Below, piece after piece: positions 12,986 to 29,645 of a DNA stretch of 64,000 nucleotides. Source of the DNA: Butyrivibrio sp. MC2013 (GTDB lineage: Bacteria; Bacillota; Clostridia; Lachnospirales; Lachnospiraceae); assembly GCF_000424585.1 (NCBI RefSeq), contig NZ_AUKE01000004.1, positions 62,001 through 126,000 on the forward strand, given 5' to 3'. The notes under the pieces are model-generated. The model had not been told where the DNA came from. It worked only from the letters and a program-made list of their open reading frames with translations, and ran no database searches. Each line of letters opens with the position of its first letter. The first letter of the stretch is position 1. Both the position numbers and the translations under genes were made by a program.

Positions 12986-14425
12986 TTATGCAGCTACTGT
13001 CTCAGCGTTATCAAATCTCTTGATATCATCAAGCATCTTTTGAGGGTCATAAATGACGCCTTTCTTGAGGATCGCAAATATAATCCTCAGAAGCTTGCAT
13101 GCTATAACTATCAGCGACTGCATCTTCTTTAGCGGATTCTTCGGCCGTGTAGTGTAGTACTCATGTATCAACTGGAATTCTTCAGCATGAGCCACAACTG
13201 ATTTAGCTCCTTGGAACAGCCAGGTTCGCAGTTCTTTGCGTCCTCTGTGGCTTATCTTTGTTTCGCCATTATGCTTGCCCGAACTGCATGCAACAAGGTT
13301 TAATCCACTTAGTTTCTGTATTTCCTTAACATCGTCAAATCTATCAATATCCCCCATTGAAGATATGATCCCTGCAACTATGTTCTGACCCAACCCAGAT
13401 ATTTCAAGGATGTTTTCAGCGTGTGGTATTTCCATGCATTTCGCATTGATAGCGGCCTCCACTTCCGAAAGTTTATCACCCAGAGAGAGCATTTCTTCCA
13501 CAAACCATCTGACAGCTTCTCTGTCGTATTCTGCACCTTCATTTCTTCCCACGCTTGTACTGGCGTATCTGAATAGTTCAGTTGCCCTGCTATAGCCGCG
13601 TCCTCTTAGCTTAGCATTGTGCCAAATCTCTCTTATGCCATCTTCACCCAATGCAACTATGTCCTCTGGAAATGGCGCAACCTTGAGCACTTCTAAAGCA
13701 AAACTTCCATCCACTTTTCCAAATGCGTCCTTATATTCAGGAAAGTGAATCTTCATTAGCCTGTGCATCCTGTTTGCACAACGGATCCTGTTCTCGGTAA
13801 GCTGACTCCTTAGAAGCGAGAGACTACGCAGATCTGCGTATATGCCCTCTGGAAGATATGGCATACCATAGTTTCCGTTCATTACCAGATTTGCTATTAC
13901 TTTGGGATCTTTTCTGTCATCCTTTAACTGGCTGTTGTCTTCAACCTCCTTTGTCTGCTTGACTGCATATGGATTTACCTGTACAACACTGATACCATTG
14001 CTTATAAGCCATGTCGCTATACAGAACCAGTAATGACCTGTAGGCTCAAGTCCTAATACTATCTGCTTTTTGCCATTTACTGCAGCAAGCTCAACCATCC
14101 ATGCCTTTGCAGCTTCAAATCCTTCTTCATTATTCGTGAATGAAAATGGTTTTTTGCTGAGTTCTCTGCCTCGTATATCTATAGCTCTCAGATAATGAGT
14201 TTCACTGCCTATATCGCATCCTACTATAAGCATGTCCTCCGATATAAAAGAGAGCTTGGCATTCTTATCAAACTTTCCTGATGCTTCCAGATCATGCCAG
14301 GTCTTAGCCTGCATTGTCTTGAGAAGATCATCGATTCTTGACTGTCTTTCTTCGGCTGATAAAGTGTTTATCACCGAGAAAGCTTTGTTTACTTGATTTT
14401 TGTTTTCATTTGCTTTAGCATTCAT
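12986..14425 (-). CDS. IS110-family transposase (DEDD recombinase)
   Basis: A 479-residue transposase. The N-terminal RuvC-like DEDD domain shows LIVGCDIGSETH and later GLEPTGHYW, with KDDRKDPKVIANL further on. The C-terminal transposase_20 domain shows EISGLGQNIVAGIISSMGDI, KLSGLNLVACSSG and SHRGRKELRTWL, including the conserved serine region. A roughly 65-residue N-terminal extension makes it longer than a typical 400-residue member. It appears intact. The AGAGG ribosome site 8 bases before the ATG lies inside a stem (14431-14498), which could hold translation down. Inserted on the minus strand between the flippase gene and an IS110 remnant. Confidence 0.93.
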   Translation of the reverse strand: MNAKANENKNQVNKAFSVINTLSAEERQSRIDDLLKTMQAKTWHDLEASGKFDKNAKLSFISEDMLIVGCDIGSETHYLRAIDIRGRELSKKPFSFTNNEEGFEAAKAWMVELAAVNGKKQIVLGLEPTGHYWFCIATWLISNGISVVQVNPYAVKQTKEVEDNSQLKDDRKDPKVIANLVMNGNYGMPYLPEGIYADLRSLSLLRSQLTENRIRCANRMHRLMKIHFPEYKDAFGKVDGSFALEVLKVAPFPEDIVALGEDGIREIWHNAKLRGRGYSRATELFRYASTSVGRNEGAEYDREAVRWFVEEMLSLGDKLSEVEAAINAKCMEIPHAENILEISGLGQNIVAGIISSMGDIDRFDDVKEIQKLSGLNLVACSSGKHNGETKISHRGRKELRTWLFQGAKSVVAHAEEFQLIHEYYTTRPKNPLKKMQSLIVIACKLLRIIFAILKKGVIYDPQKMLDDIKRFDNAETVAA

Positions 14426-18023: not shown

Positions 18024-18962
18024 TCATTTGCTATTTTTTATCATAATCAGCGGTTCTGTAATATATGCCCTTTTTGAATGGTAACAATCTAGGTAGAATA
18101 CCAGCCTTAACATATTGGAAATTTTATGGTCTTTAACAAGGTCCAATCTTAATTGTGCTGCCCTGATATTCTTTTTTATTCTAGATATAGCCATCTCATT
18201 CATGTTATTGGATATAGCGCACCTCAATATATTTTCATCACTTTTCAAAAGGTCTTGTAGATATTTTATACGAACATCTATTTTGTGTTTGGGTCTCATC
18301 GATACATTCGACGAGTGCAGCCTCCTCTTCACAAGGCGTCTATGCAAAATATACAATCCGTCAAAGCAGAGCGCTGTCCTCCACAAATACTCATCATGAG
18401 CCCATCCAGAGTACCAGAATTTATCTGCTTCATGCAGAAAACTTCTCCTAACACACATAAGGCATCCTAATCTACTGAGATACATAGTCCTTTTGTTAAG
18501 ATGATACTGCTCAACACTACCATCATTTCTCATTGATCTGGACACCTCTCTCTTGATAGAGGGAGCATCAGAAGATGATACGAGAGGTGTAAAGTCGGAG
18601 CATAAAAGCTTAACACCATTATCTTTCTGCATCACACCCAGCATTGCTTCGACTTTATCAGGCTCCCATACATCGTCCTGATCGCACACGAATATGTACT
18701 CGCCACTACATAACATCATAGCCTTATGAAAATTATCAGCATAGCCAAGATTATTATCATTTACGACAAGTTTCCAACTGTCAGATAATCCCTTTTGTTC
18801 AATGAATCTCTTCACTATCTCACAAGTATCATCAGATGATCCATCATCGCATATGATGACTTCTTCAACTTGCACAGTCTGTTCATATATAGACTGAAGC
18901 TGCTCTTGAATATAGTCACTACCATTATAAGATGCAATTGCAACCGAACTCTTAATTTCCAT
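18024..18962 (-). CDS. GT2 family glycosyltransferase (rhamnosyltransferase-like)
   Basis: A 312-residue cytoplasmic family 2 glycosyltransferase. It begins VAIASYNGSDYIQEQLQSI, has ICDDGSSDDT and the metal-binding FVCDQDDVW motif seen in rhamnosyl- and galactosyl-transferases of capsule loci, then a CMLLC..DF region and a tail without membrane segments. The ATG at 18962 is used because GAGG lies 6 bases ahead; it overlaps the end of the CotH-like gene by 11 bases, implying translational coupling. It likely extends the polysaccharide repeat unit. Donor sugar is not determinable. Confidence 0.87.
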   Translation of the reverse strand: MEIKSSVAIASYNGSDYIQEQLQSIYEQTVQVEEVIICDDGSSDDTCEIVKRFIEQKGLSDSWKLVVNDNNLGYADNFHKAMMLCSGEYIFVCDQDDVWEPDKVEAMLGVMQKDNGVKLLCSDFTPLVSSSDAPSIKREVSRSMRNDGSVEQYHLNKRTMYLSRLGCLMCVRRSFLHEADKFWYSGWAHDEYLWRTALCFDGLYILHRRLVKRRLHSSNVSMRPKHKIDVRIKYLQDLLKSDENILRCAISNNMNEMAISRIKKNIRAAQLRLDLVKDHKISNMLRLVFYLDCYHSKRAYITEPLIMIKNSK

Positions 18963-21471
18963 TTTCAGCCTCATTTTCAGTCGCTACCACATCTTCCACA
19001 TTCTGAGCTTCTTCACCTACCTTTTTATTACTAGATGACACATTGTTCTTTTTACTATTCAAAGTAGATGTTTTCACAAAATTTGCTTTGATATCAGCAT
19101 TAGAGCTAACAGTTACAACCTGATAGTTTTCATCGCGATCGATTACTTTTACGCCCTTTCCATTAGTCCAACCTGTAAAAGTATATCCCTGCTCGGGTAC
19201 AGCTATAAGTGTAAACTGTTCATCTCTGACCTTAACAACTTTCATATAACCATTATCAGAGTTTGTCGCATCTCCGGACTCTGCAACAGACACCGATCCT
19301 GTAGCCTTATCAGCCGTATGAACCTTAATCTCATATACTCCGGTATACGTATCTTTAAAATCAGCAAGATAATCATCGATATATGTCTGCCTGTTTTCAA
19401 AGAATTCGTATATATCTGTCATTACAAAATCATAATACTTGTCATTATTATTATTAACAAACCTACTATAAAAACCACGCATAATAGGAGCTTGAGATAA
19501 AAATGAATCGATTATTTCCCCTGTTGAATCAGAACTAAAGAAATCATCTTCCATTTCTTTAAAACGCTTTACAAACTTATCCCTAAAAGTGTCATTGCAC
19601 ATAAGTGATGCAAACATGTCATTACAAGAAACAAGTTTACTTGCAAACGTATTAATCTTCCAATCTGTATCGTCTGACGCTCCGCTGGAAGCGTTACTAT
19701 CTCCAAGGATCATCCTCCATTTACCGTCGCCGTATTTAGAGTCTTTATCTTTGGAAGCAGATCTCCACATTGATGCATTTCCTTCAGTGAAAGAATTAGC
19801 ATCTCCTATATACAGCTTAAGAGCATAGTATTCTATAAAATTATCAATATCTACCATATCACAAAGCTTTTTATACTCTTCATCCTTCGAGATATAGTTG
19901 TGTGCAATGTAATCAACGAGTTTTCGATACTCTTCCTGCGCATCTTCAGAATTAGCTTTACCATTATTAACAATATATGAATCTGATACCTTATATGTCT
20001 GTGAGATATAATCAGAGTCTATAGTATTGTTCATAGTATAGACCCCCCAATACTCGCCGTCCAAAAATACAGCACACAGTTGGGATTCGGCTACAGTAAT
20101 GGAAGTATTGGAAGCAAGTGAACTAATGACTCTGTTTCTGCTCTTTGTAAGATAGTCCTTCCCACCATTGCTAAGCAATAAACTATATCCATCTTCATTC
20201 TTTGCCAGAAATCTGCTTATTCCCGAAGTTGCTCTGCCACCTAGATCAATAGAGTCAAGTTGCAAACTCTTCTGGCCCTGATAGATTCCATCATCAATGC
20301 CGATACTAAGTTTCGTTTTTTCTATGAAACTAACAGATCTGTCTTTCTCTATATAAGTAATCTCAGCATCACAACTATCGCCATTATAGAAATTAGCTGA
20401 TCTGGAACTTACTTCTCCATTGATAAGAGCATTTCCATACTCCTCGCCGAGGACATAAATACCGGTTCTATAATCAAATAGATCTGCAGGATCAGTATTA
20501 ATTGCAATAATAGGTATTCCCTGGTACTCAGATCTTTTACCATAATTTATAAAATAGGTCTCACTAACAGTATCACTCCTGGTACCATCCTCAAAAACAG
20601 ACATAGCCTTAAGAACAGTCGCCTTGTCAATATCATCTGCAGGAGGATTATAGCCTGCATACATTGTTATTTCTTTTTCATTTGCATAAATATTATCATC
20701 TCCCGAACGGTCAGTGATAGTAATAGCATCTGTATAAAGTGATGACTCAGTAGTAGGTTCAGTTCCATCAAGGGTATAGTAAGTCTTACTGTGTTCCGGA
20801 GTATATATTTGAACAGTCATCTCAGAATCATACATGCCGGATCTAAGGGATATTACAGGTTTATTCTTTGCGCTGACAGGCGAATCATTATTACTTGATC
20901 CTTCTGTAGGATTGAAATAACCAAATGAGTACTCACCGTCTTTGGTCCTTCCAAATGCCTCATTAACATTGCAAGTAGGTACAATAAGACTATCGATCAA
21001 CTCACCTTGAGAATCTCTGACTGTTATATAGTCAGTATTATCAAACTTAAGCCTCTGAGTTATATCGCAATCTTTTGTGCCAAGTCTTATAGTTTTATAC
21101 TGCCCCTTTGATAATACAGTCCCTGATGAAAATGAAAATGAGTAATCACCGACATTAAGGCTCACATTATAGGCACTTATATCTACGTTTTCTTTGCTGG
21201 AATTAATTAGCTCAATATAATCATAATCGCTCATGTGGCCAATTTCATTGATCACAATCTGCTTTTGAGCAAGTTTCTTGCTTTTTTCCTGCTTATTTAC
21301 ATCATTTTGGGTAATACTGGAATCAACCACATTTGCTATCTCACGTTGCTGTAATCTGTTAACAGCCATGATAAATATTCCCAGCATCATCATTGACAAA
21401 ACAGCTATAGCTATAATGATCTTCCCTGAACTGTTAGACTCATCTCCATCTTTTCTAAACATCTTTTTCAT
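18952..21471 (-). CDS. CotH kinase family protein with lamin-tail and beta-hexosaminidase-C-like domains
   Basis: An 839-residue protein anchored by one N-terminal membrane segment (IIIAIAVLSMMMLGIFIMAV). A lamin-tail-like domain (about 70-170, VINEIGHMSDYDYIELINSS), a chitobiase/hexosaminidase C-terminal-like domain (about 200-310, TYYTLDGTEPTTESSLY) and a CotH kinase-like domain (about 320-690) follow. In the last, RATSGISRFLAKN, VFLDGEYWGVYTM and the KWRMILGDSNAS acidic motif are visible. A C-terminal bacterial repeat (FTLIAVPEQGYTFTGW) ends the protein. CotH in spore coats phosphorylates protein; its role in polysaccharide loci is not established, but the extracytoplasmic position suggests acting on surface proteins or polymer. 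It lies in the operon between the Wzz-kinase fusion and a GT2. Confidence 0.87.
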   Translation of the reverse strand: MKKMFRKDGDESNSSGKIIIAIAVLSMMMLGIFIMAVNRLQQREIANVVDSSITQNDVNKQEKSKKLAQKQIVINEIGHMSDYDYIELINSSKENVDISAYNVSLNVGDYSFSFSSGTVLSKGQYKTIRLGTKDCDITQRLKFDNTDYITVRDSQGELIDSLIVPTCNVNEAFGRTKDGEYSFGYFNPTEGSSNNDSPVSAKNKPVISLRSGMYDSEMTVQIYTPEHSKTYYTLDGTEPTTESSLYTDAITITDRSGDDNIYANEKEITMYAGYNPPADDIDKATVLKAMSVFEDGTRSDTVSETYFINYGKRSEYQGIPIIAINTDPADLFDYRTGIYVLGEEYGNALINGEVSSRSANFYNGDSCDAEITYIEKDRSVSFIEKTKLSIGIDDGIYQGQKSLQLDSIDLGGRATSGISRFLAKNEDGYSLLLSNGGKDYLTKSRNRVISSLASNTSITVAESQLCAVFLDGEYWGVYTMNNTIDSDYISQTYKVSDSYIVNNGKANSEDAQEEYRKLVDYIAHNYISKDEEYKKLCDMVDIDNFIEYYALKLYIGDANSFTEGNASMWRSASKDKDSKYGDGKWRMILGDSNASSGASDDTDWKINTFASKLVSCNDMFASLMCNDTFRDKFVKRFKEMEDDFFSSDSTGEIIDSFLSQAPIMRGFYSRFVNNNNDKYYDFVMTDIYEFFENRQTYIDDYLADFKDTYTGVYEIKVHTADKATGSVSVAESGDATNSDNGYMKVVKVRDEQFTLIAVPEQGYTFTGWTNGKGVKVIDRDENYQVVTVSSNADIKANFVKTSTLNSKKNNVSSSNKKVGEEAQNVEDVVATENEAENGN

Positions 21472-23007: not shown

Positions 23008-24330
23008 TTATTTTAAATAAATTGATTTCTTCTTATCATTTACAAGTTCCTCACATTCCACACAAAATATTGCCAATAGTACATATGTGTATTTAATGGT
23101 CATTAAATGATCCATATACCACAGATTGATATAAAATGCAGAAAGAGCTATTATAATAACTACGGAAATTTTATAACCTTTCTTTATGGCGACAACCTGC
23201 TTTTGAAGCGTCTGTATCATGAATAAGATATAAGCGATCATTCCCGGATAAGCATATTTTATAAATAAGCAAATATAAAAATTATCCACAGAATGAATAA
23301 ATGCACCATTAATCTCAGCTGCAAACCCACGTTTTACTCCACGCCCAATAAAAGGATTCAAAAAACTCACATGAAATATATTTAATAGTTGCTTTCTATA
23401 TTCAGCACTTTGAGCTAATCTCTCGCTTTCAGCGCCATATCTTACAGCATATTCAGTACCCAAGACCGTATCAACAAGCGTTGCGAAAGAACGCAGTATA
23501 TATTGTGCCGGTCCACTCTTAGTAAAAAATATAACCATAACAAGAATAACAAAGACAACGCACATAATGAGCAAGCCATTACGTTTCTGATATTTCTTTT
23601 CACTGAAAATCATCAGCAGAAACAATTCAATAAGTACAAGTCCCAAAGATGATCTTGATCCATTAAGTATTACATTAATGAAGAGCATTATTATAAGAAA
23701 GGGTCTTGCAAATAAGTTAATTTCTTTTTCTTTATACTTATAGCATGCAAGTGGAACAATGACCAAAAGCAGCAAACCATACGACAAAGAATGATTACAT
23801 GGTCCCATTACCCTATAAGAACCATTTCTTATAAATGCTCCGCTATACATTCCTTTTAACGTTTCCAAATAAGAAAACAAAGATCGTTTCATAAGGAACT
23901 CAATAATACCCTGAAAGCACAACAGATACCCATATAAATAGATCAAATCCAGCGTCTTCTCAACACCAAGAGAATTCTTTATGATGTACACAAGAAGATA
24001 AAAGCACACCAGATCTATGAAGGGCCTGAGAAAAGCATTGACATCTCCTCTCAATCCACCGGTATATAAAGTAATAAATGAATAGATTGCAATAGCCGGA
24101 GTAAAATAATTATTTTTAATTATATCCAGAAACTCTCTACTCCTTATCCTCTTTTCAAAAATAAACACAAGCAAAGCCAGCATGAAAATTCTCTGAACAG
24201 ACAGATCAAACACCTTAATGTCTATGCCAAAATAAGCTGGCATAACAAACAAAGCAAAGAAAAAAGCGACTGACAATCGATAAAATGAAGTTTTCCACCT
24301 AGTATCTTTAAAATAATTTATATGTTCCAT
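23008..24330 (-). CDS. Wzy-type O-antigen polymerase/ligase family protein
   Basis: A 440-residue polytopic protein with about 12 membrane segments and the O-antigen ligase/polymerase signature around GSRSSLGLVLIELFLL, plus a long loop near residues 300-360 rich in charged residues (GRGVKRGFAAEING). It would join repeat units after Wzx export. First gene of the minus-strand polysaccharide operon and divergent from the riboswitch-controlled gene. The ATG at 24330 is preferred (AAGGA just ahead) over a TTG at 24351 that lacks a ribosome site. Confidence 0.85.
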   Translation of the reverse strand: MEHINYFKDTRWKTSFYRLSVAFFFALFVMPAYFGIDIKVFDLSVQRIFMLALLVFIFEKRIRSREFLDIIKNNYFTPAIAIYSFITLYTGGLRGDVNAFLRPFIDLVCFYLLVYIIKNSLGVEKTLDLIYLYGYLLCFQGIIEFLMKRSLFSYLETLKGMYSGAFIRNGSYRVMGPCNHSLSYGLLLLVIVPLACYKYKEKEINLFARPFLIIMLFINVILNGSRSSLGLVLIELFLLMIFSEKKYQKRNGLLIMCVVFVILVMVIFFTKSGPAQYILRSFATLVDTVLGTEYAVRYGAESERLAQSAEYRKQLLNIFHVSFLNPFIGRGVKRGFAAEINGAFIHSVDNFYICLFIKYAYPGMIAYILFMIQTLQKQVVAIKKGYKISVVIIIALSAFYINLWYMDHLMTIKYTYVLLAIFCVECEELVNDKKKSIYLK

Positions 24331-24660
24331 ATTCCTTATATTTATACTCAATATATATTTATCATAATTTAATCAAAAACTTTTCACATGTTATCATGAA
24401 GCGGCTCATATAAACCATCATATTGACAAAGATTTTTGTCCTTAAAAAACAACATATATGTTTCCTCTAAACAAACCCAGAAACTAAGTATATCACAGAT
24501 TGGTTCAGAAATAAAAAAAGCGTATCGATGTTTTTCATCAAATAGATTATGTCAACAAATGTTACGCGCCTATTAATTGCATAAAAATACAGAAAGCACA
24601 AAGCAAAGCCAACAATACCAACTAAATATAAACGTTCAAACTAGTATATCAAAAAAGTTC
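24331..24660. other. Divergent intergenic region
   Basis: No gene is visible. It separates the wzy-led operon (minus) from the riboswitch unit (plus). It is AT-rich and should contain the minus-strand promoter, though I cannot assign boxes with confidence. Confidence 0.4.
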
Positions 24661-24701
24661 TTGCAATTAATGTTACAAACATGTTAACATATATACATAA
24701 T
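24661..24701 (+). promoter_or_regulatory. Promoter candidates ahead of the c-di-GMP riboswitch
   Basis: Two pairs fit: TTGCAA (24661-24666) with TAACAT (24685-24690), 18-base spacer, and TTACAA (24673-24678) with CATAAT (24696-24701), 17-base spacer. The first puts the start site just before the aptamer and fits better. A perfect palindrome ATGTTAACAT (24681-24690) overlaps the -10 region and may be an operator. Confidence 0.5.
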
Positions 24702-24779
24702 AAATATCAGGCAAAATATACGAAAGTATATCACGCAAAACTATAGGGACTTTAAAATGTCAGCCAGCTACGGATATTA
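24702..24779 (+). ncRNA. Cyclic di-GMP-I (GEMM-I) riboswitch aptamer
   Basis: The aptamer binds the second messenger c-di-GMP. The sequence shows the GEMM-I signatures in order: AGGCAAA, a helix ATATAC-GAAA-GTATAT closed by the docking GNRA tetraloop, CACGCAAAACTATAGGGAC, and GTCAGCCAGCTACGG. The basal helix forms between AATATC (24703-24708) and GATATT (24773-24778). The intrinsic terminator 14 bases downstream makes transcriptional control likely. Direction (on or off) cannot be read with certainty. Confidence 0.9.
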
Positions 24780-24793
24780 AACTGAAGATCTGG

Positions 24794-24825
24794 CGGCATT
24801 ATGGTTTTCCATGATGCCGTTTTTT
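24794..24825 (+). terminator. Riboswitch expression-platform terminator
   Basis: CGGCATTATGG (24794-24804) pairs with CCATGATGCCG (24809-24819) around a TTTT loop, followed by six T. The segment ACTGAAGATC just before it can pair with ATCTTCAG near 24852-24859, and the basal aptamer strand is adjacent, so an alternative fold that frees the terminator arm is conceivable. Confidence 0.85.
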
Positions 24826-24907
24826 ATGAAAAGGAAGGAATCCAAGTTCACATCTTCAGAATATTCTTAGCCTACGTTAACGTAAAGGAAGGGTTAGTGT
24901 AGACGAG

Positions 24908-25267
24908 ATGAGAGAAAAGATTATGACTTACAGATACGATGGAATTGTTGTAGACCTATATTGCTGTACCGAAGAAGACAACTACAAGCTGGGATTTTTA
25001 AGACGCAATTTACAAAGCAGAGAATTCACAATGGAAGACCTTTTCCATTGGCTTCATGTTCAGGATATTTACTTCCGTATTCGTTATGAATATAATCGAT
25101 GTCTTTCGATTTGTACAAACATCAACAGCTACATCAAGTATCTGAAAGCTCATCGCAGCTACAGGGCAACAGGTAAAGCCAAGCAGAAGCATGACAGCAA
25201 TGATCTCATTGTAAGAGAGGTCATTTCACTTCTTGATGATACATCCTACAGTGTATATAAGATTTGA
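24908..25267 (+). CDS. Small unknown protein under c-di-GMP riboswitch control
   Basis: A 119-residue soluble protein that I do not recognise. It starts MREKIMTYRYDGIVVDLYCC, contains a CC pair and single cysteines further on, aromatic and charged residues throughout, and a basic stretch (SYRATGKAKQKHD) near residue 90. No signal peptide or membrane segment is seen. It is the only gene between the GEMM-I riboswitch terminator and the convergent RiPP cassette, so it is the presumed riboswitch target. AAAGGAAGGG lies 14 bases ahead of this ATG, rather far; the ATG at 24923 is an alternative. A perfect palindrome TACGTTAACGTA (24873-24884) abuts the ribosome site. Confidence 0.65.
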   Translation: MREKIMTYRYDGIVVDLYCCTEEDNYKLGFLRRNLQSREFTMEDLFHWLHVQDIYFRIRYEYNRCLSICTNINSYIKYLKAHRSYRATGKAKQKHDSNDLIVREVISLLDDTSYSVYKI

Positions 25268-25368
25268 TATTATTCCATTCTTCATTTTTTAAGCCATCGC
25301 TATTACAGCAATGACTTGATTTTGGTTACGCTCTATATATAACTTAATCACTGTATTAATATGAAAAG

Positions 25369-25391
25369 AGGAGGATCATTTAATCCTCCTC
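25369..25391 (-). terminator. Terminator after the RiPP precursor gene
   Basis: GAGGAGGAT (25369-25377) pairs with ATCCTCCTC (25383-25391). Read on the minus strand the hairpin is followed by TTTTC, 13 bases after the precursor stop codon. Confidence 0.75.
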
Positions 25392-25403
25392 CTACCGTTT
25401 CAA

Positions 25404-25580
25404 TTAGTCATTAACGATAACTTCAGGTGTTCCGCTGTTGCTTGAAGGACCGTAAGTAGGCTTATAATACTTACCGTCATCGGACTCATAGTGTCCATCT
25501 TCTCTTGTTCCACTAAGGGGTGAGTAAGCTGTAGCCTGAACGCCAAGTTCCTCAACAACAGGTGTATTCCATGTCTTCAT
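25404..25580 (-). CDS. RiPP precursor peptide, lasso-like leader
   Basis: A 58-residue peptide with a very strong ribosome site (AGGAGG, 7 bases). The first 18 residues resemble Firmicute lasso leaders: MKTWNTPVVEELGVQATA, with the W..P..E.L.V..T arrangement and Thr at the position two before the expected cleavage. The following core would begin YSPLSGTRED, placing Glu27 at core position 9, the right spacing for a nine-residue macrolactam ring. The remaining core is long (40 residues in all), rich in Gly, Ser, Tyr and Asp, which is unusual. It lies 71 bases after an HPr-kinase-like gene and an asparagine-synthetase-like gene on the same strand. The product class is inferred, not shown. Confidence 0.7.
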   Translation of the reverse strand: MKTWNTPVVEELGVQATAYSPLSGTREDGHYESDDGKYYKPTYGPSSNSGTPEVIVND

Positions 25581-25651
25581 CTTTTTTCCTCCTCTAACGA
25601 AATAATAACTACATTTTTAGTATAACCAAGATTTTTATTTTTTGTATAATT

Positions 25652-26569
25652 CTAACACAATTGTAATAATTTTATCTGTTTTATTATTTCCTCAACCGTA
25701 TCCCCTTCAGTAGGCCTGTCAATATAATATATAGCGACCTTATCATACATTTTGCCTATCATCTGGATCATAGACATGGGCACTCCCAAATCTCTCTTAT
25801 AGTTCACTGACAGATAGAGATTGTTCACCACAGCATCTATATAATCCTTGCCGGTCAGCCTTTGGTACTGCACCTTATCTATATCATCACGTACTCTGAG
25901 GATGTATATTGCATTAACTAGCATTTCCTCGGATATATATTTCTCTCTTCTGGGAACAGCAAATTTATCCCTCTCTTCATCGATATAGATCATTCCCTCT
26001 ATACCCAGCTTCTCAGCTACGTCTCTGCATACCTTCTGCTGAGGATATGTGGGCTGCGCGTAGACTCCCTCATCTCTTGTCAATATCCTGACAGTATCAT
26101 CTGCCAGGAAATAGTTATCATCCTCCGCCAGCAGCTCCATGGTTATGGTTGATTTGCCGGCTCCACTCTCTCCGCTCACAACAAATGCATGACCGTCTCT
26201 AACGATCACTCCTCCATGTAATACCATTTCATTTCTTTGAAGGATTATCAGACATAGTCCGGCGCTTAACAGCATAGAATACAGCAGCTTGTCATCTCCG
26301 TTTGGCACAGGCTTGACTACGATCCGTCTTCCATCATGCACATAATACTGACCGGTACCGGGAGTATTAAACCATGCCTCGCCAAATCCATTTATCCAGG
26401 AATTATATCCCTTTGAAACAGCATCTTCCAGCTTCGATGGAATATCTCCAAGAACTATCTCGACATCTACCGTTCCTTCATCCTCAGCATCAAGAACCTC
26501 TGCAGGAGGTATCTCAATATCTGAAGCCACTTTCAATCCATATATTTTATACATATACTTATGATTCAT
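25652..26569 (-). CDS. HPr-kinase-like protein of a RiPP cassette
   Basis: A 305-residue protein with an HprK-type nucleotide-binding domain: MVLHGGVIV, the P-loop GESGAGKST and a following LADDTV acidic motif. In paeninodin-type lasso clusters such kinases phosphorylate the precursor, often on a C-terminal serine; this precursor ends in Asp, so another Ser/Thr/Tyr would have to be the target. The start at 26569 is chosen because GGAG lies 7 bases ahead and it overlaps the cyclase stop codon by 11 bases; the longer frame has no ribosome site. The N-terminal 100 residues (YKIYGLKVASDIEIP) are family-typical. Translation is probably coupled to the cyclase gene. Confidence 0.82.
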   Translation of the reverse strand: MNHKYMYKIYGLKVASDIEIPPAEVLDAEDEGTVDVEIVLGDIPSKLEDAVSKGYNSWINGFGEAWFNTPGTGQYYVHDGRRIVVKPVPNGDDKLLYSMLLSAGLCLIILQRNEMVLHGGVIVRDGHAFVVSGESGAGKSTITMELLAEDDNYFLADDTVRILTRDEGVYAQPTYPQQKVCRDVAEKLGIEGMIYIDEERDKFAVPRREKYISEEMLVNAIYILRVRDDIDKVQYQRLTGKDYIDAVVNNLYLSVNYKRDLGVPMSMIQMIGKMYDKVAIYYIDRPTEGDTVEEIIKQIKLLQLC

Positions 26570-28361
26570 ACATCTTCTCCATATATTCACACAAGAATCC
26601 CATATATATTGCCTTGGTGAATCTGAAATTATACTGATCCTCTTTTGTCGTAAGTTCATCCAGACTCTTTTTCAGCTTATCCGTATCCAAGTATCTCTCC
26701 GCTCCCGGAAGACTATACATTCTGATAAGTTCCTCTTTAATAATGTCCCACGACTTTAGGACCTGCCTGCCTATCCCTACACCTTGCCTGCCTCTATGTC
26801 TTACATCCAGAGCAATCTCCTTAGGGATAATATCAGACATATAACTTCTTACCAGTCTTCTGTCACAGCCAACATCTACAAAACGTTCTATAGGGAGAGA
26901 CATCACCAGCTCAATCAATCTTCTGTCTCTAGTAGGATCTCTATGAATAACTCCAGTCATCAGAGATTGATGCAATTCTGCTTCCCCTATCTGCCTGAGG
27001 GCACCCTTATCATACATAAACCTTCTCGAAGGACTAATAGAGTATTCCTTATTCTTGTCAGCCAGAATCTGCAATAATGTATCCTTTCTGCTTCTTTTGT
27101 AGATCTTGGAATATCTATTCACTGCTATCAACAACTCAATTATTCGCCCCTGATACTTAAGCGTAGCAAAGAGATTATCAAGTATGCCATATGATATAGT
27201 AATATTCCCGTATTGACCTGATAGGAGGATCCTGCACCCATCTTTCGCCGCATCACAGTATGCCTGATAAAGCCAGGGAATATTAGCAATTGATTTAATA
27301 GGGCTTTCCATGACTTTCAAGAAATCCCTGTTACTTTTCATCACATCAATTTGAGAAGTATCTATATATCCAGGCTCTAGATTATCATGATATTTCTGTA
27401 ATATCTCTATATAAACTCTCTCGTTTTCCACATCATATCTGTCCGCAGGAATGGCTTCAGTCTCATTCTTGGGAATTGATGTATAGGAATAAAGCTTTTT
27501 GCCTTTTTTAGCCAGATATGGTGCAGCATACGCAGCTACGGCATTGGAATCCAATCCTCCGCTTAGAAGTATGCCTGTTTCACCGCCATCTCTGATCACA
27601 GACTCCACACATTTTTTAAAAGTCTTATTTACAAGTTCCTTCACATCCTCATCGGACAATTTTCCCAGGGATTTTCTATGCTTCATAGGTTCCCAATAGG
27701 CTTTATGCTTCAAGCCCTCTCTTGAAAAAGTCAATAATTCTCCAGGTTCCAGGCGATATATACCTTTGCATGGTGTTTCCGAAGCAGAATCAACTATCTT
27801 GAGACTATCATTGTCAACGTACTCAGATAGCCATTTCTCATTTATTTCCACCCTGTCCAGAAAAGGAATAAGAGACTCCATAAGTGAAGAAAAGCAAAGC
27901 CTTTCTCCCTTAACTGTGTAGTATACAGACCTGTTTCCTACTGCATCATTGCCTATCTGCAGAACTTTATCTTCTTCATCATATCTTGCAAAAACAAATG
28001 CTCCGCATGCTTTATCAAGGGTTCTGTGGATATCCTGATCTATGCATTCATTTAATATACTACCATCCACTCCTTGAAGACTAAGATTACCTGAAAGTGA
28101 AAAGCTATCAAGAAGTTCCTCCCTATTATCAATGATGGCATCAGCCACGAAATACCTTGATTCCGAATTAATGTAGGGATACTTCTCCATAGCCGCCTCT
28201 TTAACTACGTATTGAAGGCCCACTGCCATGTACATAGAGTCTCTTCGAATATCTTTTATCCCATCTATGTTCTTAATCTTATAAGGATCTTGCAGAGCCT
28301 TGATATAATCATCAGTTACAGGCTTATTATTCAGATCAACGATGCCCCATATTGCCGACAT
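26559..28361 (-). CDS. Asparagine-synthetase-like (lasso-cyclase-like) protein
   Basis: A 600-residue class-B asparagine synthetase homologue. It begins MSAIWGIVDLNN, so it lacks the catalytic Cys2 of the glutaminase site, as in lasso-peptide cyclases that adenylate a side-chain carboxylate. The synthetase domain has the pyrophosphate loop LLSGGLDSNAVAAY (about residue 265). In a lasso pathway it would activate the Glu/Asp of the ring and join it to the core N-terminus. The ATG at 28361 is chosen for its GGGAG site; an upstream in-frame ATG has none. Neighbours are the kinase and precursor; no leader peptidase, RRE protein or exporter is adjacent. Function as cyclase is inferred. Confidence 0.83.
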   Translation of the reverse strand: MSAIWGIVDLNNKPVTDDYIKALQDPYKIKNIDGIKDIRRDSMYMAVGLQYVVKEAAMEKYPYINSESRYFVADAIIDNREELLDSFSLSGNLSLQGVDGSILNECIDQDIHRTLDKACGAFVFARYDEEDKVLQIGNDAVGNRSVYYTVKGERLCFSSLMESLIPFLDRVEINEKWLSEYVDNDSLKIVDSASETPCKGIYRLEPGELLTFSREGLKHKAYWEPMKHRKSLGKLSDEDVKELVNKTFKKCVESVIRDGGETGILLSGGLDSNAVAAYAAPYLAKKGKKLYSYTSIPKNETEAIPADRYDVENERVYIEILQKYHDNLEPGYIDTSQIDVMKSNRDFLKVMESPIKSIANIPWLYQAYCDAAKDGCRILLSGQYGNITISYGILDNLFATLKYQGRIIELLIAVNRYSKIYKRSRKDTLLQILADKNKEYSISPSRRFMYDKGALRQIGEAELHQSLMTGVIHRDPTRDRRLIELVMSLPIERFVDVGCDRRLVRSYMSDIIPKEIALDVRHRGRQGVGIGRQVLKSWDIIKEELIRMYSLPGAERYLDTDKLKKSLDELTTKEDQYNFRFTKAIYMGFLCEYMEKMYES

Positions 28362-28427
28362 TACATACACTCCCATTTTGTAATTCTACGAAACAAAACA
28401 CATTGGATTATAACATATAGACACGAA

Positions 28428-28452
28428 AAGAGGGAAGCCATGCTTCCCTCTT
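28428..28452 (-). terminator. Terminator after glgD
   Basis: AAGAGGGAAGC (28428-28438) pairs with GCTTCCCTCTT (28442-28452) around a 3-base loop. On the minus strand T residues follow. It separates glgCD from the cyclase gene, which probably has its own promoter; a TATAAT-like -10 lies near 28410. Confidence 0.8.
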
Positions 28453-28526
28453 GTTCACTCATGGATAGGATCCAATGATCATCTATACATGTTGAATGAC
28501 AATAACATTAGACACCATTCATTATT

Positions 28527-29645
28527 TCAGATGATATCCATCCTCTTGATATATCCCGGCTTATCCTCCGAGAATACAATCTTATTATTATCCTTTACCT
28601 TGGCCCATTTATCCACAACCACATTTTCAAGGCGTACATTCTCTCCTATTTCTGAATGTCCCATGATCACGCAGTTCTTGACTACCGAGCCCTTCTTGAT
28701 CTCTACGCCTCTTCCTATTACAGAATTCTCAACGCTTCCTTCGATCACGCAGCCGTTAGCCACCATAGTCTTCTTCACAGAGGCACCGGGACGATATCTA
28801 ACTGGACAGGAGTCTGTAGTATGGGTATAGATTGGCCAATCGTCAGTAAAAAGGCTATTGGCTATATTCATATCCAACAGGTGCATATTAGCATCAAAGT
28901 AAGCCTTGAAATCTGTTATTGCCGCAAAGAAGCCCTTATGCTGTATTCCTCTGATATCCAGTTCTTCCGACTCAGCATCAATGATATTGGTCAGCCTGGA
29001 AATAGATGAAAGCTTCTTAGCCTTCACAATCAGTTCCATAAAGAGCTCTCTGGTCATTATATAGGTATCCATGAAGATATTCTTCTCAGCTTCGATACCA
29101 GTATTGATTCTCATGGATTTGAAGCCCTTCTGCCTGTTAAGCTCCAGTGTATAGCAGTTCCTATAGCAGGTATCTGCATGACTGGTCTTGTGATATAGAA
29201 GGGATATATCAGCGCCAGAATCAATATGAGCTTTTAGTAGCTGATCAAAATTCTGTTTAAAGACCATATATCCGGGAGTGATTATCACATACTTCTGAGG
29301 ACACCTCTCGATGATCGGAAGATTATCCAAATAAGCCTTAACATCAGTATTATATATATCACTCAGAACACTTTCTCTTGAAAACATCATTTCCAGGCGT
29401 CCGCGCTTGGAATTGATATTATAGATTCTGCCGTTTCCCACGTGCTCTGCCAGAGACCTGGGATTCTCGCTGGTCACATAGACCTGCACTCTCTCGATTC
29501 CGCTGTTGGACAGGTTGGATACAGGAAAATCAATGAGCCTGTATCTGCCCAGGAAAGAAAAAGCGTTAATGGATCTGAATTCCTGCATGCCCTCGACCTT
29601 GATATATCCTCCGGCGGGAGCTACAATTCCCAATGCATCTTCCAT
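28527..29645 (-). CDS. glgD: GlgD-type ADP-glucose pyrophosphorylase subunit
   Basis: A 372-residue homologue of glucose-1-phosphate adenylyltransferase of the GlgD type, the noncatalytic or regulatory partner of GlgC in Firmicutes. It has the nucleotidyltransferase-like start (APAGGYIKVEG...RLIDFPVSNLSNSGIERVQVY) without the GGxGxRL catalytic loop, and a C-terminal left-handed beta-helix with hexapeptide repeats (SVENSVIGRGVEIKKGSVVKNC). It starts within a few bases of the glgC stop, so they form an operon. The inner ATG at 29645 is preferred for ribosome-site spacing. Supports glycogen storage. Confidence 0.9.
   Translation of the reverse strand: MEDALGIVAPAGGYIKVEGMQEFRSINAFSFLGRYRLIDFPVSNLSNSGIERVQVYVTSENPRSLAEHVGNGRIYNINSKRGRLEMMFSRESVLSDIYNTDVKAYLDNLPIIERCPQKYVIITPGYMVFKQNFDQLLKAHIDSGADISLLYHKTSHADTCYRNCYTLELNRQKGFKSMRINTGIEAEKNIFMDTYIMTRELFMELIVKAKKLSSISRLTNIIDAESEELDIRGIQHKGFFAAITDFKAYFDANMHLLDMNIANSLFTDDWPIYTHTTDSCPVRYRPGASVKKTMVANGCVIEGSVENSVIGRGVEIKKGSVVKNCVIMGHSEIGENVRLENVVVDKWAKVKDNNKIVFSEDKPGYIKRMDII

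What the first reader, a model, noticed from the sequence alone, without database searches (positions are those of the whole stretch)
25404..28361. Compact RiPP cassette: lasso-like precursor, HPr-kinase-like protein and cyclase, without B or D genes
The precursor leader fits lasso rules (Trp/Pro start, Thr at -2, Glu at core position 9), and the cyclase homologue has lost the glutaminase Cys2. Yet no RRE protein, leader protease or exporter is nearby, and the 40-residue Tyr/Asp/Ser-rich core is far longer than usual lasso cores. Either the missing parts are encoded elsewhere or this is a different peptide modification using adenylation plus phosphorylation.
Basis: partly seen in the sequence, partly recalled or inferred. 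Interest (0 to 1): 0.85.

Follow-up and report, generated by a model that had tools for sequence, protein, structure and literature searches.

The report
Satellite lasso-peptide cassette with distant partners
A bacterium of the Butyrivibrio group carries a small gene cassette for what is probably a knotted 'lasso' peptide, and the seemingly missing helper genes lie about 30,000 bases away, where one shared set may serve several such cassettes.

Summary
The three genes are real: a C-K-A operon (cyclase, HprK-like kinase, 58-aa precursor). It is a lasso-type RiPP cassette. The 'missing' parts lie just outside the window: B2, nucleotidyltransferase, B1/RRE, a second kinase, a second precursor and an ABC exporter, 27-33 kb away on the same contig across exopolysaccharide genes. 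A second cassette of the same kind sits on another contig. The genome has one B2 and one B1 above curated cut-offs. This recurs: of 28 genomes with this cyclase (this one included), 14 have two or more cyclases and 12 of those exactly one B2.

Long cores, and Thr three residues before a Gly, are already published predictions for Butyrivibrio (PMC7533575). In 35 of 56 such precursors no other acid sits at a usable distance, so either the leader is cut after Thr-X-X or the ring has ten residues; each breaks a rule of nearly all characterised lasso peptides. Phosphorylation of this peptide is unproven: the usual C-terminal Ser is absent.

The parts
26559..28361 (-). Lasso-type macrolactam cyclase C1 (MSAIWG start; the ORF runs to 28376). 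Keeps the SGGLDS ATP-binding motif, lacks the glutaminase Cys2
   Evidence: NF033535 5.2e-55 (187 bits, curated cut-off 525); Asn_synthase PF00733 5e-17; 53% identity to the cyclase of a contiguous cluster in L071
25652..26569 (-). HprK-like peptide kinase K1; likely start at the internal ATG (MNHKYMYKIYG), overlapping the cyclase end by 11 nt
   Evidence: H148, K169, D187, D188 (numbered on the long ORF) fall in columns 97-100% conserved in 98 aligned kinase ORFs, some of them fetched twice; 51% identity to K of L071
25404..25580 (-). Precursor peptide A1, 58 aa
   Evidence: leader resembles NF033524 (paeninodin-family precursor) at E 0.008, below cut-off
25524..25580 (-). Leader of A1, MKTWNTPVVEELGVQATAY if cut after Thr17-Ala-Tyr (one residue shorter if Thr is penultimate); WxxP is the RRE-binding motif
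   Evidence: Thr 13 residues after Trp, the criterion by which 75 distinct precursor candidates were kept; motif from PMC13381572
25407..25523 (-). Core SPLSGTRED-GHYESDDGKYYKPTYGPSSNSGTPEVIVND; conserved acceptor Asp (Asp9 in this reading, Asp10 if Tyr is residue 1)
   Evidence: Asp 11 residues after Thr shared with L045 and L071; 59 of 92 precursors have it
25588..25593 (-). Shine-Dalgarno AGGAGG, 7 nt before the A1 start
   Evidence: Read from sequence
25366..25393 (-). Terminator-like hairpin, 12-bp stem, directly after A1: end of the C-K-A operon
   Evidence: 4 terminator-like sites found in 24300-29000, 2.0 expected from shuffles

Best explanation
This is a satellite C-K-A cassette of a paeninodin-like (WxxP-leader, split-B) lasso peptide system of the Lachnospiraceae. 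The precursor is made with an RRE-binding leader. The B1 protein, encoded about 30 kb away in the same exopolysaccharide region, binds the WxxP leader and presents it to the cassette kinase and to B2. B2 removes the leader close behind the conserved Thr. The cassette's own cyclase adenylates the conserved Asp and closes the macrolactam ring, leaving a tail of about 30 residues. The distant ABC protein exports the product, and the distant nucleotidyltransferase may decorate a phospho-serine. The same B1, B2 and D probably serve two further precursors in this genome. Shown: gene content, conservation, intact catalytic residues, one B2 and one B1 above cut-off, dispersed cyclases in relatives. 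Inferred: sharing in trans, ring closure, threading, phosphorylation, export and any role in the cell envelope.
For: Own genome: B2 over the lasso B2 cut-off (77.5 vs 33 bits) and B1 over the lasso PqqD cut-off (82 vs 80); one PF13471 and one PF05402 match over cut-off genome-wide (each search also gave one weak match below cut-off); B1 also matches the solved lasso RRE 9x90_B at 1.6e-16. The nearest relative, L071, holds the same genes as one contiguous cluster N-B2-C-K-A-A-B1-D, with cyclase 53% and kinase 51% identical and a similar precursor. The hub carries a further precursor with the same leader type but a Cys-rich core (leader match). A second cassette of cyclase, kinase and precursor is on contig C8. 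Dispersal is recurrent: of 28 genomes with this cyclase (own included), 27 have B2; 14 have at least two cyclases and 12 of those one B2; of 46 cyclases 16 have no B2 on their contig and 6 more are over 10 kb from it. Kinase His-Lys-Asp-Asp present (motif from PMC9266682). No archaeal-type signal peptidase of the LPP pathway found in the genome.
Against: The cyclase scores far below the NF033535 cut-off (187 vs 525 bits), as does the genome's second cyclase (174). The precursor scores below the NF033524 cut-off. The C-terminal Ser that paeninodin-type kinases phosphorylate is absent (the peptide ends in Asp). B1, B2, N and D are closest to those of other relatives, not of L071, so the hub and the window cassette need not be two halves of one ancestral cluster. 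The genome is a draft in 48 contigs, so a second B2 in a gap is possible, though completeness is given as 99.83%. 'No B2 on the contig' is partly a matter of contig ends in drafts. Exporters were not searched genome-wide, so another D may exist. No expression or product data.
Confidence: 0.86

Rival explanations
1. Reading A of the ring: the leader is cut after Thr-X-X (Thr at -3), giving Ser1-Asp9 here and usually Gly1-Asp9 in relatives, a normal nine-residue ring; the second precursor class, whose acid lies one residue earlier, would have eight-residue rings.
For: At the third residue after Thr, Gly/Ala/Ser/Cys occur in 50 of 56 Asp-at-11 precursors (Gly in 48) against 12 of 56 at the second residue; Ser stands there in the window peptide. 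Gly, Cys, Ser and Ala are named among the observed first residues, and Asn was added (PMC12670498, passages). A 2020 survey made the same assignment for rumen precursors (PMC7533575).
Against: Thr was at the penultimate position in lasso precursors reported before an Ile variant was described in 2023 (PMC10368454, abstract and one section). In paeninodin, as I recall it (no call), the Gly three after Thr is core residue 2, so a Gly there does not mark the cut. L071's close homologue has Asp at that position, and in the other class only 15 of 24 have a small residue there.
Confidence: 0.55
2. Reading B of the ring: Thr stays penultimate, the core starts with Tyr (X in relatives) and closes on Asp10: natural ten-residue lasso rings, with the second precursor class making nine-residue rings.
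For: One B2 appears to serve both precursor spacings in G000, G096 and G203 (in G000 the window peptide has acids at both places). The acid spacing follows the cyclase tree: 6 changes against 16.4 in shuffles, 0 of 500 as low, as expected if the cyclase sets the ring size. A ten-residue analogue was made in vitro with another lasso system (PMC8498205, passage).
Against: Structurally characterised rings have 7, 8 or 9 residues (PMC13352647, passage). It needs Tyr, Asn, Gln, His or Phe as first residue in many members. A fixed distance between cut and Thr is assumed. Reading A explains the same tree.
Confidence: 0.3
3. Linear polyphosphorylated peptide (LPP) or another cyclase-free kinase RiPP.
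For: LPP clusters share HprK-like kinase, RRE, nucleotidyltransferase and MsbA-like exporter and often sit in capsular polysaccharide loci (PMC13381572).
Against: A cyclase is in the same operon as the precursor; leader is WxxP, not the LPP YxxP motif; a lasso B2 is present and no archaeal-type signal peptidase was found.
Confidence: 0.04
4. Decaying remnant: an exopolysaccharide or transposon insertion split a lasso cluster and the fragments no longer work together.
For: An IS110-type transposase (12986-14425) and exopolysaccharide genes lie between the parts; the nearest relative's cluster is contiguous.
Against: The ORFs are intact with catalytic residues kept; dispersed cyclases with a single B2 recur in relatives; the hub's enzymes are closest to other relatives.
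Confidence: 0.07
5. The cyclase homologue is a housekeeping asparagine synthetase and the small frame is chance.
For: Asn_synthase and glutamine amidotransferase domain hits.
Against: No Cys2; best match is the lasso cyclase family; separate Cys2 proteins in the genome; many relatives sit beside the same kind of leader peptide.
Confidence: 0.01

Closest known systems
Predicted Butyrivibrio/Lachnospiraceae lasso peptides of Sabino et al. 2020 (PMC7533575; passages and section 16 with its Table 3 read)
   Same: Same leader type, long tails (cores 21-44 residues), HprK-like kinase, nucleotidyltransferase, glycosyltransferase neighbours; measured from the leader Thr, 26 of its 30 distinct precursors have Asp at 11, one of these with an acid at 10 as well (the script anchored one of the 26 on a second Thr and printed it as 10). 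Some of these sequences are also in my own set
   Different: That survey fixed Gly as residue 1 and let the leader end float; in the parts read it does not note the fixed Thr-Asp spacing or one B2 serving several dispersed cyclases
Paeninodin and pseudomycoidin (kinase-bearing Firmicute lasso peptides; PMC9266682 and PMC5067487, passages read)
   Same: Split B1/B2, HprK-like kinase with His-Lys-Asp-Asp, nucleotidyltransferase (pseudomycoidin), ABC exporter
   Different: No C-terminal Ser here; Asp one residue further from Thr than in paeninodin (paeninodin spacing recalled); longer tail; genes dispersed
Linear polyphosphorylated peptides (LPP; PMC13381572, abstract, three of twelve text parts and the discussion read)
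   Same: Kinase, RRE, nucleotidyltransferase and exporter in polysaccharide loci
   Different: LPP has YxxP leaders, an SpI leader peptidase and no cyclase
Contiguous cluster of Lachnospiraceae bacterium RGIG8006 (L071)
   Same: Nearest cyclase and kinase and a similar precursor
   Different: All genes together in N-B2-C-K-A-A-B1-D order

Membership tests
Lasso peptide systems (split-B, WxxP leader) | Leader with [Y/W]xxP RRE-binding motif | tested here: met
   W4-N-T-P7 in A1; same motif in many relatives
Lasso peptide systems (split-B, WxxP leader) | Thr at the penultimate leader position | tested here: inconclusive
   Thr17 present; cut site either one or two residues after it
Lasso peptide systems (split-B, WxxP leader) | Asp/Glu acceptor at core position 7, 8 or 9 | tested here: inconclusive
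   Conserved Asp is position 9 if cut after Thr-X-X, 10 if after Thr-X
Lasso peptide systems (split-B, WxxP leader) | Asparagine-synthetase-like cyclase of the lasso family | tested here: inconclusive
   Best family NF033535 at 5e-55 but 187 bits against a cut-off of 525; lacks Cys2, keeps SGGLDS
Lasso peptide systems (split-B, WxxP leader) | B2 leader peptidase encoded in the genome | tested here: met
   NF033537 77.5 bits, cut-off 33; C85 and H120 lie in columns invariant in 55 aligned B2 ORFs; 33 kb from the cyclase
Lasso peptide systems (split-B, WxxP leader) | B1/RRE protein encoded in the genome | tested here: met
   NF033536 82 bits, cut-off 80; 9x90_B match; 30 kb away
Lasso peptide systems (split-B, WxxP leader) | Threaded lariat product | not testable with these tools
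   Needs mass spectrometry or NMR
Paeninodin subfamily | Precursor above the NF033524 cut-off | tested here: not met
   15.9 bits, cut-off 27
Paeninodin subfamily | C-terminal Ser, the kinase target | tested here: not met
   A1 ends in VIVND
Paeninodin subfamily | Kinase with His-Lys-Asp-Asp catalytic residues | tested here: met
   H148, K169, D187, D188
Linear polyphosphorylated peptides (LPP) | YxxP leader motif | tested here: not met
   WxxP
Linear polyphosphorylated peptides (LPP) | Archaeal-type signal peptidase SpI | tested here: not met
   No TIGR02228 match at 1e-5 in the genome; the control rings in 6 of 14 genomes
Linear polyphosphorylated peptides (LPP) | No macrolactam cyclase | tested here: not met
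   Cyclase is the first gene of the operon
Asparagine synthetase B | N-terminal catalytic Cys2 | tested here: not met
   Starts MSAIWG

The most novel reading that the evidence does not exclude
In Butyrivibrio and kin, one shared leader-recognition, cleavage and export hub (B1, B2, D) serves several dispersed precursor-kinase-cyclase cassettes. Cyclase classes acting behind the same protease close rings that differ by one residue, and the window's class makes natural ten-residue lasso rings with long tails, embedded in exopolysaccharide loci.
Probability: 0.25. Interest if true: 0.7.

Novelty: new variant of a known kind. Interest (0 to 1): 0.45.

Why it matters
Genome-mining rules that look for A, B and C together will miss or misread cassettes like this one; a shared hub with dispersed cassettes would be a modular way to gain new peptides by moving only three genes. 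The fixed Thr-to-Asp distance of 11 forces a choice between two rules that nearly all characterised lasso peptides obey (penultimate Thr, ring of at most nine), and one mass spectrum would decide it.

Tried and rejected
Kinase tree as a further test of precursor class: 4 changes against 5.6 in shuffles, 27 (or 34, by the other label) of 500 as low, only 27 of 85 kinases labelled; too weak to use. Conserved internal Ser as kinase target: in 40 precursors of the Asp-at-11 set without a C-terminal Ser, 31 have Ser beside Gly, Pro or Ser in the tail, but shuffled tails give 24.5 on average and up to 31; no convincing target. The idea that hub and window cassette are two halves of one ancestral cluster: the hub's B1, B2, N and D are closest to other relatives, not to L071. 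LPP reading rejected. Asparagine synthetase reading rejected. A search of the genome with the window precursor returned only itself, but it also missed the two other precursors found by pattern, so it does not show that there are no more. No structure was predicted: the fold class is hardly in doubt and a model would not settle cut site or ring size.

Rows dropped: precursor candidates were found by a leader pattern; of 104 candidate entries 75 distinct sequences with Thr at Trp+13 were kept, the rest being repeat copies or not fitting. From the 36 leader-profile hits printed I picked 17 by hand; one (L125, acid 9 after its Thr) did not anchor, 16 entered; with the precursor of contig C8 that makes 92. 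The set is selected for the Thr, so Thr invariance is not a result. In the tree test 28 of 90 cyclases had no usable label: most have no precursor found, a few have precursors with an acid at neither place, and two, the window's own among them, have acids at both. Cyclase counts per genome join pieces of one ORF by hand and include a few partial or broken ORFs (G300, G311, G351); thresholds were 1e-20 for one class and 1e-40 for the other.
Full report
1. Is it there? The three minus-strand genes are at the stated place: cyclase 26559-28376, kinase 25652-26659 (likely start at 26569), precursor 25404-25580. They read as one operon C-K-A: cyclase and kinase overlap, the precursor has AGGAGG 7 nt before its ATG, and a 12-bp terminator-like hairpin follows it. 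The small frame is not chance: nearly the full peptide, core included, matches a precursor in a different genus of the family (L045, 54% identity) and one in the nearest relative (L071, 46%).

2. Where are the missing genes? The window is G000:C3:62001-126000. Searching the whole genome gave one B2 match over the Pfam cut-off at C3:55416-55673 and one B1/PqqD match over the cut-off at C3:57312-57512 (each search also returned one weak match below cut-off elsewhere). Reading that stretch shows, in order, B2 (minus), nucleotidyltransferase N (minus), B1 (plus), a second HprK-like kinase (plus), a second precursor (plus) with the same leader type and a Cys-rich core, and an MsbA-like ABC exporter (plus), C3:55374-60749. 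This hub ends 1.25 kb left of the window and lies 27-33 kb from the cassette. NCBIfam confirms lasso B2 (77.5 bits, cut-off 33) and lasso-type PqqD (82 bits, cut-off 80). Between hub and cassette are exopolysaccharide and glycosyltransferase genes and an IS110-type transposase.

3. More cassettes. The genome's other hits to the lasso cyclase model resolve into Cys2-bearing asparagine-synthase-like proteins on C4 and C19, and a second cassette on C8: cyclase without Cys2, kinase and a 67-aa precursor ending in Ser. So at least three precursors, three kinases and two cyclases appear to depend on one B1 and one B2; I found one exporter of this type but did not search exporters genome-wide. A search with the window's own precursor returned only itself, and since it missed the other two precursors it does not exclude more.

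4. Is that arrangement accidental? The window cyclase occurs at E 1e-20 in 9 of 299 genomes sampled from the family and in 20 of 79 of the genus, own genome included in both. In the 28 genomes with this cyclase, 27 have B2 at 1e-8. Counting both cyclase searches, 14 of 28 have at least two cyclases; of those 12 have exactly one B2, one has two, one has none. Of 46 cyclases, 16 have no B2 on their contig and 6 are more than 10 kb from it, one 876 kb away in a genome of four contigs. Draft contig ends inflate the first number, and a few of the 46 are partial ORFs. I read this as a hub with satellite cassettes; sharing in trans is inferred, not shown. The nearest relative, L071, has everything in one cluster, but the hub's B1, B2, N and D are closest to other relatives, so simple splitting of one ancestral cluster is not established.

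5. The ring. In 75 distinct precursors chosen by leader pattern with Thr 13 residues after Trp, plus 17 more, Asp stands exactly 11 residues after Thr in 59 of 92 (3 of these with an acid at 10 as well, the window's among them); 24 of 92 have Asp/Glu at 10 only; 9 have neither. Shuffling residues 4-20 gives 11.4 on average and at most 23, against 59 of the 91 long enough. The published table of rumen precursors, typed from PMC7533575 and partly overlapping my set, gives 24 at 11, 5 at 10 and 1 both by script; one of the five was anchored on a second Thr and is 11 from the Thr at Trp+13; the remaining four are a Bacillus and three Ruminococcus sequences. The window's Glu at 10 is Lys in L045 and Pro in L071, so the conserved Asp is the likely acceptor. 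In 35 of 56 unambiguous Asp-at-11 precursors no acid lies at 8, 9 or 10: either Thr is not penultimate or the ring has ten residues. Small first residues favour a cut after Thr-X-X (50 of 56 against 12 of 56), which matches the 2020 assignment. But Gly at the same place is residue 2 in paeninodin as I recall it (the paeninodin paper is not held), which would favour ten-residue rings. I give the first 0.55 and the second 0.30.

6. The cyclase seems to set the spacing. On a tree of 90 cyclases, 62 labelled by a near precursor, the 11/10 label needs 6 changes against 16.4 in shuffles, 0 of 500 as low. A deep clade, which holds the genome's second cyclase, has acid-at-10 precursors in all 6 labelled rows. 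One subclade mixes both labels. Several rows have long branches and odd composition, related rows cluster by descent, and support is from a quick search only. In G096 and G203 both spacings occur in a genome with one B2, and in G000 too if the window's Asp is the acceptor.

7. The kinase. The three kinases found in the genome keep the His-Lys-Asp-Asp residues shown to be needed in lasso kinases (PMC9266682, passages). C-terminal Ser, the known target in paeninodin-type peptides, occurs in 18 of 24 acid-at-10 precursors but only 17 of 56 Asp-at-11 ones, and the window peptide ends in Asp. Kinases of related systems phosphorylate Ser3 instead (PMC10368454, PMC13381572). The target here is open: internal Ser residues near Gly or Pro are not clearly above chance.

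8. Literature and novelty. Lasso clusters in Butyrivibrio, with kinases, nucleotidyltransferases, glycosyltransferases and long predicted cores, were described in 2020 (PMC7533575) and again in 2026 (PMC13289728, passages). Co-location of kinase-bearing lasso peptides with capsule loci in Bacilli is published (PMC13381572). I found no description of one B2 serving several dispersed cyclases or of the fixed Thr-Asp spacing in the listings of full-text searches, or in the passages read, of a library that lacks most subscription journals. So: a member of a predicted group, with a variant architecture and an unsettled, testable ring question. Interest 0.45.

Noticed in passing
window 12986-14425 (-): IS110-family transposase (PF01548, PF02371) between the exopolysaccharide genes that separate hub and cassette.
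   Followed up: partly
L019:16630-16815 (+), G000:C3:58630-58815: Second precursor with the same leader type but a Cys-rich core (CHDETPVCEQ...), next to a kinase, B1 and exporter but with no cyclase beside it; it would need the cyclase on contig C8 or the window's.
   Followed up: partly
L140:8487-11702 (-), G000:C8: Second cassette (cyclase, kinase, precursor) of a deeply separate cyclase class, precursor ending in Ser; no B or D homologue seen in the 17 kb read.
   Followed up: yes
L071:17175-20370 (-): In the nearest relative a second cyclase-kinase pair with another precursor type (NGIYWVDTNEESYEEYDEDLGRCHNPYW...) lies about 2 kb beyond the contiguous cluster; a like peptide is in L050.
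   Followed up: no
G285: A genome with one cyclase of each class and no B2 at 1e-8, estimated 93% complete: either a missing contig or a system without B2.
   Followed up: no
window 18952-21471 (-): 839-aa protein with CotH kinase, lamin-tail and InlB-repeat domains in the exopolysaccharide region.
   Followed up: no
window 24908-25267 (+): 119-aa ORF facing the cassette with no Pfam match up to E 1 or NCBIfam match up to E 10; function unknown.
   Followed up: no
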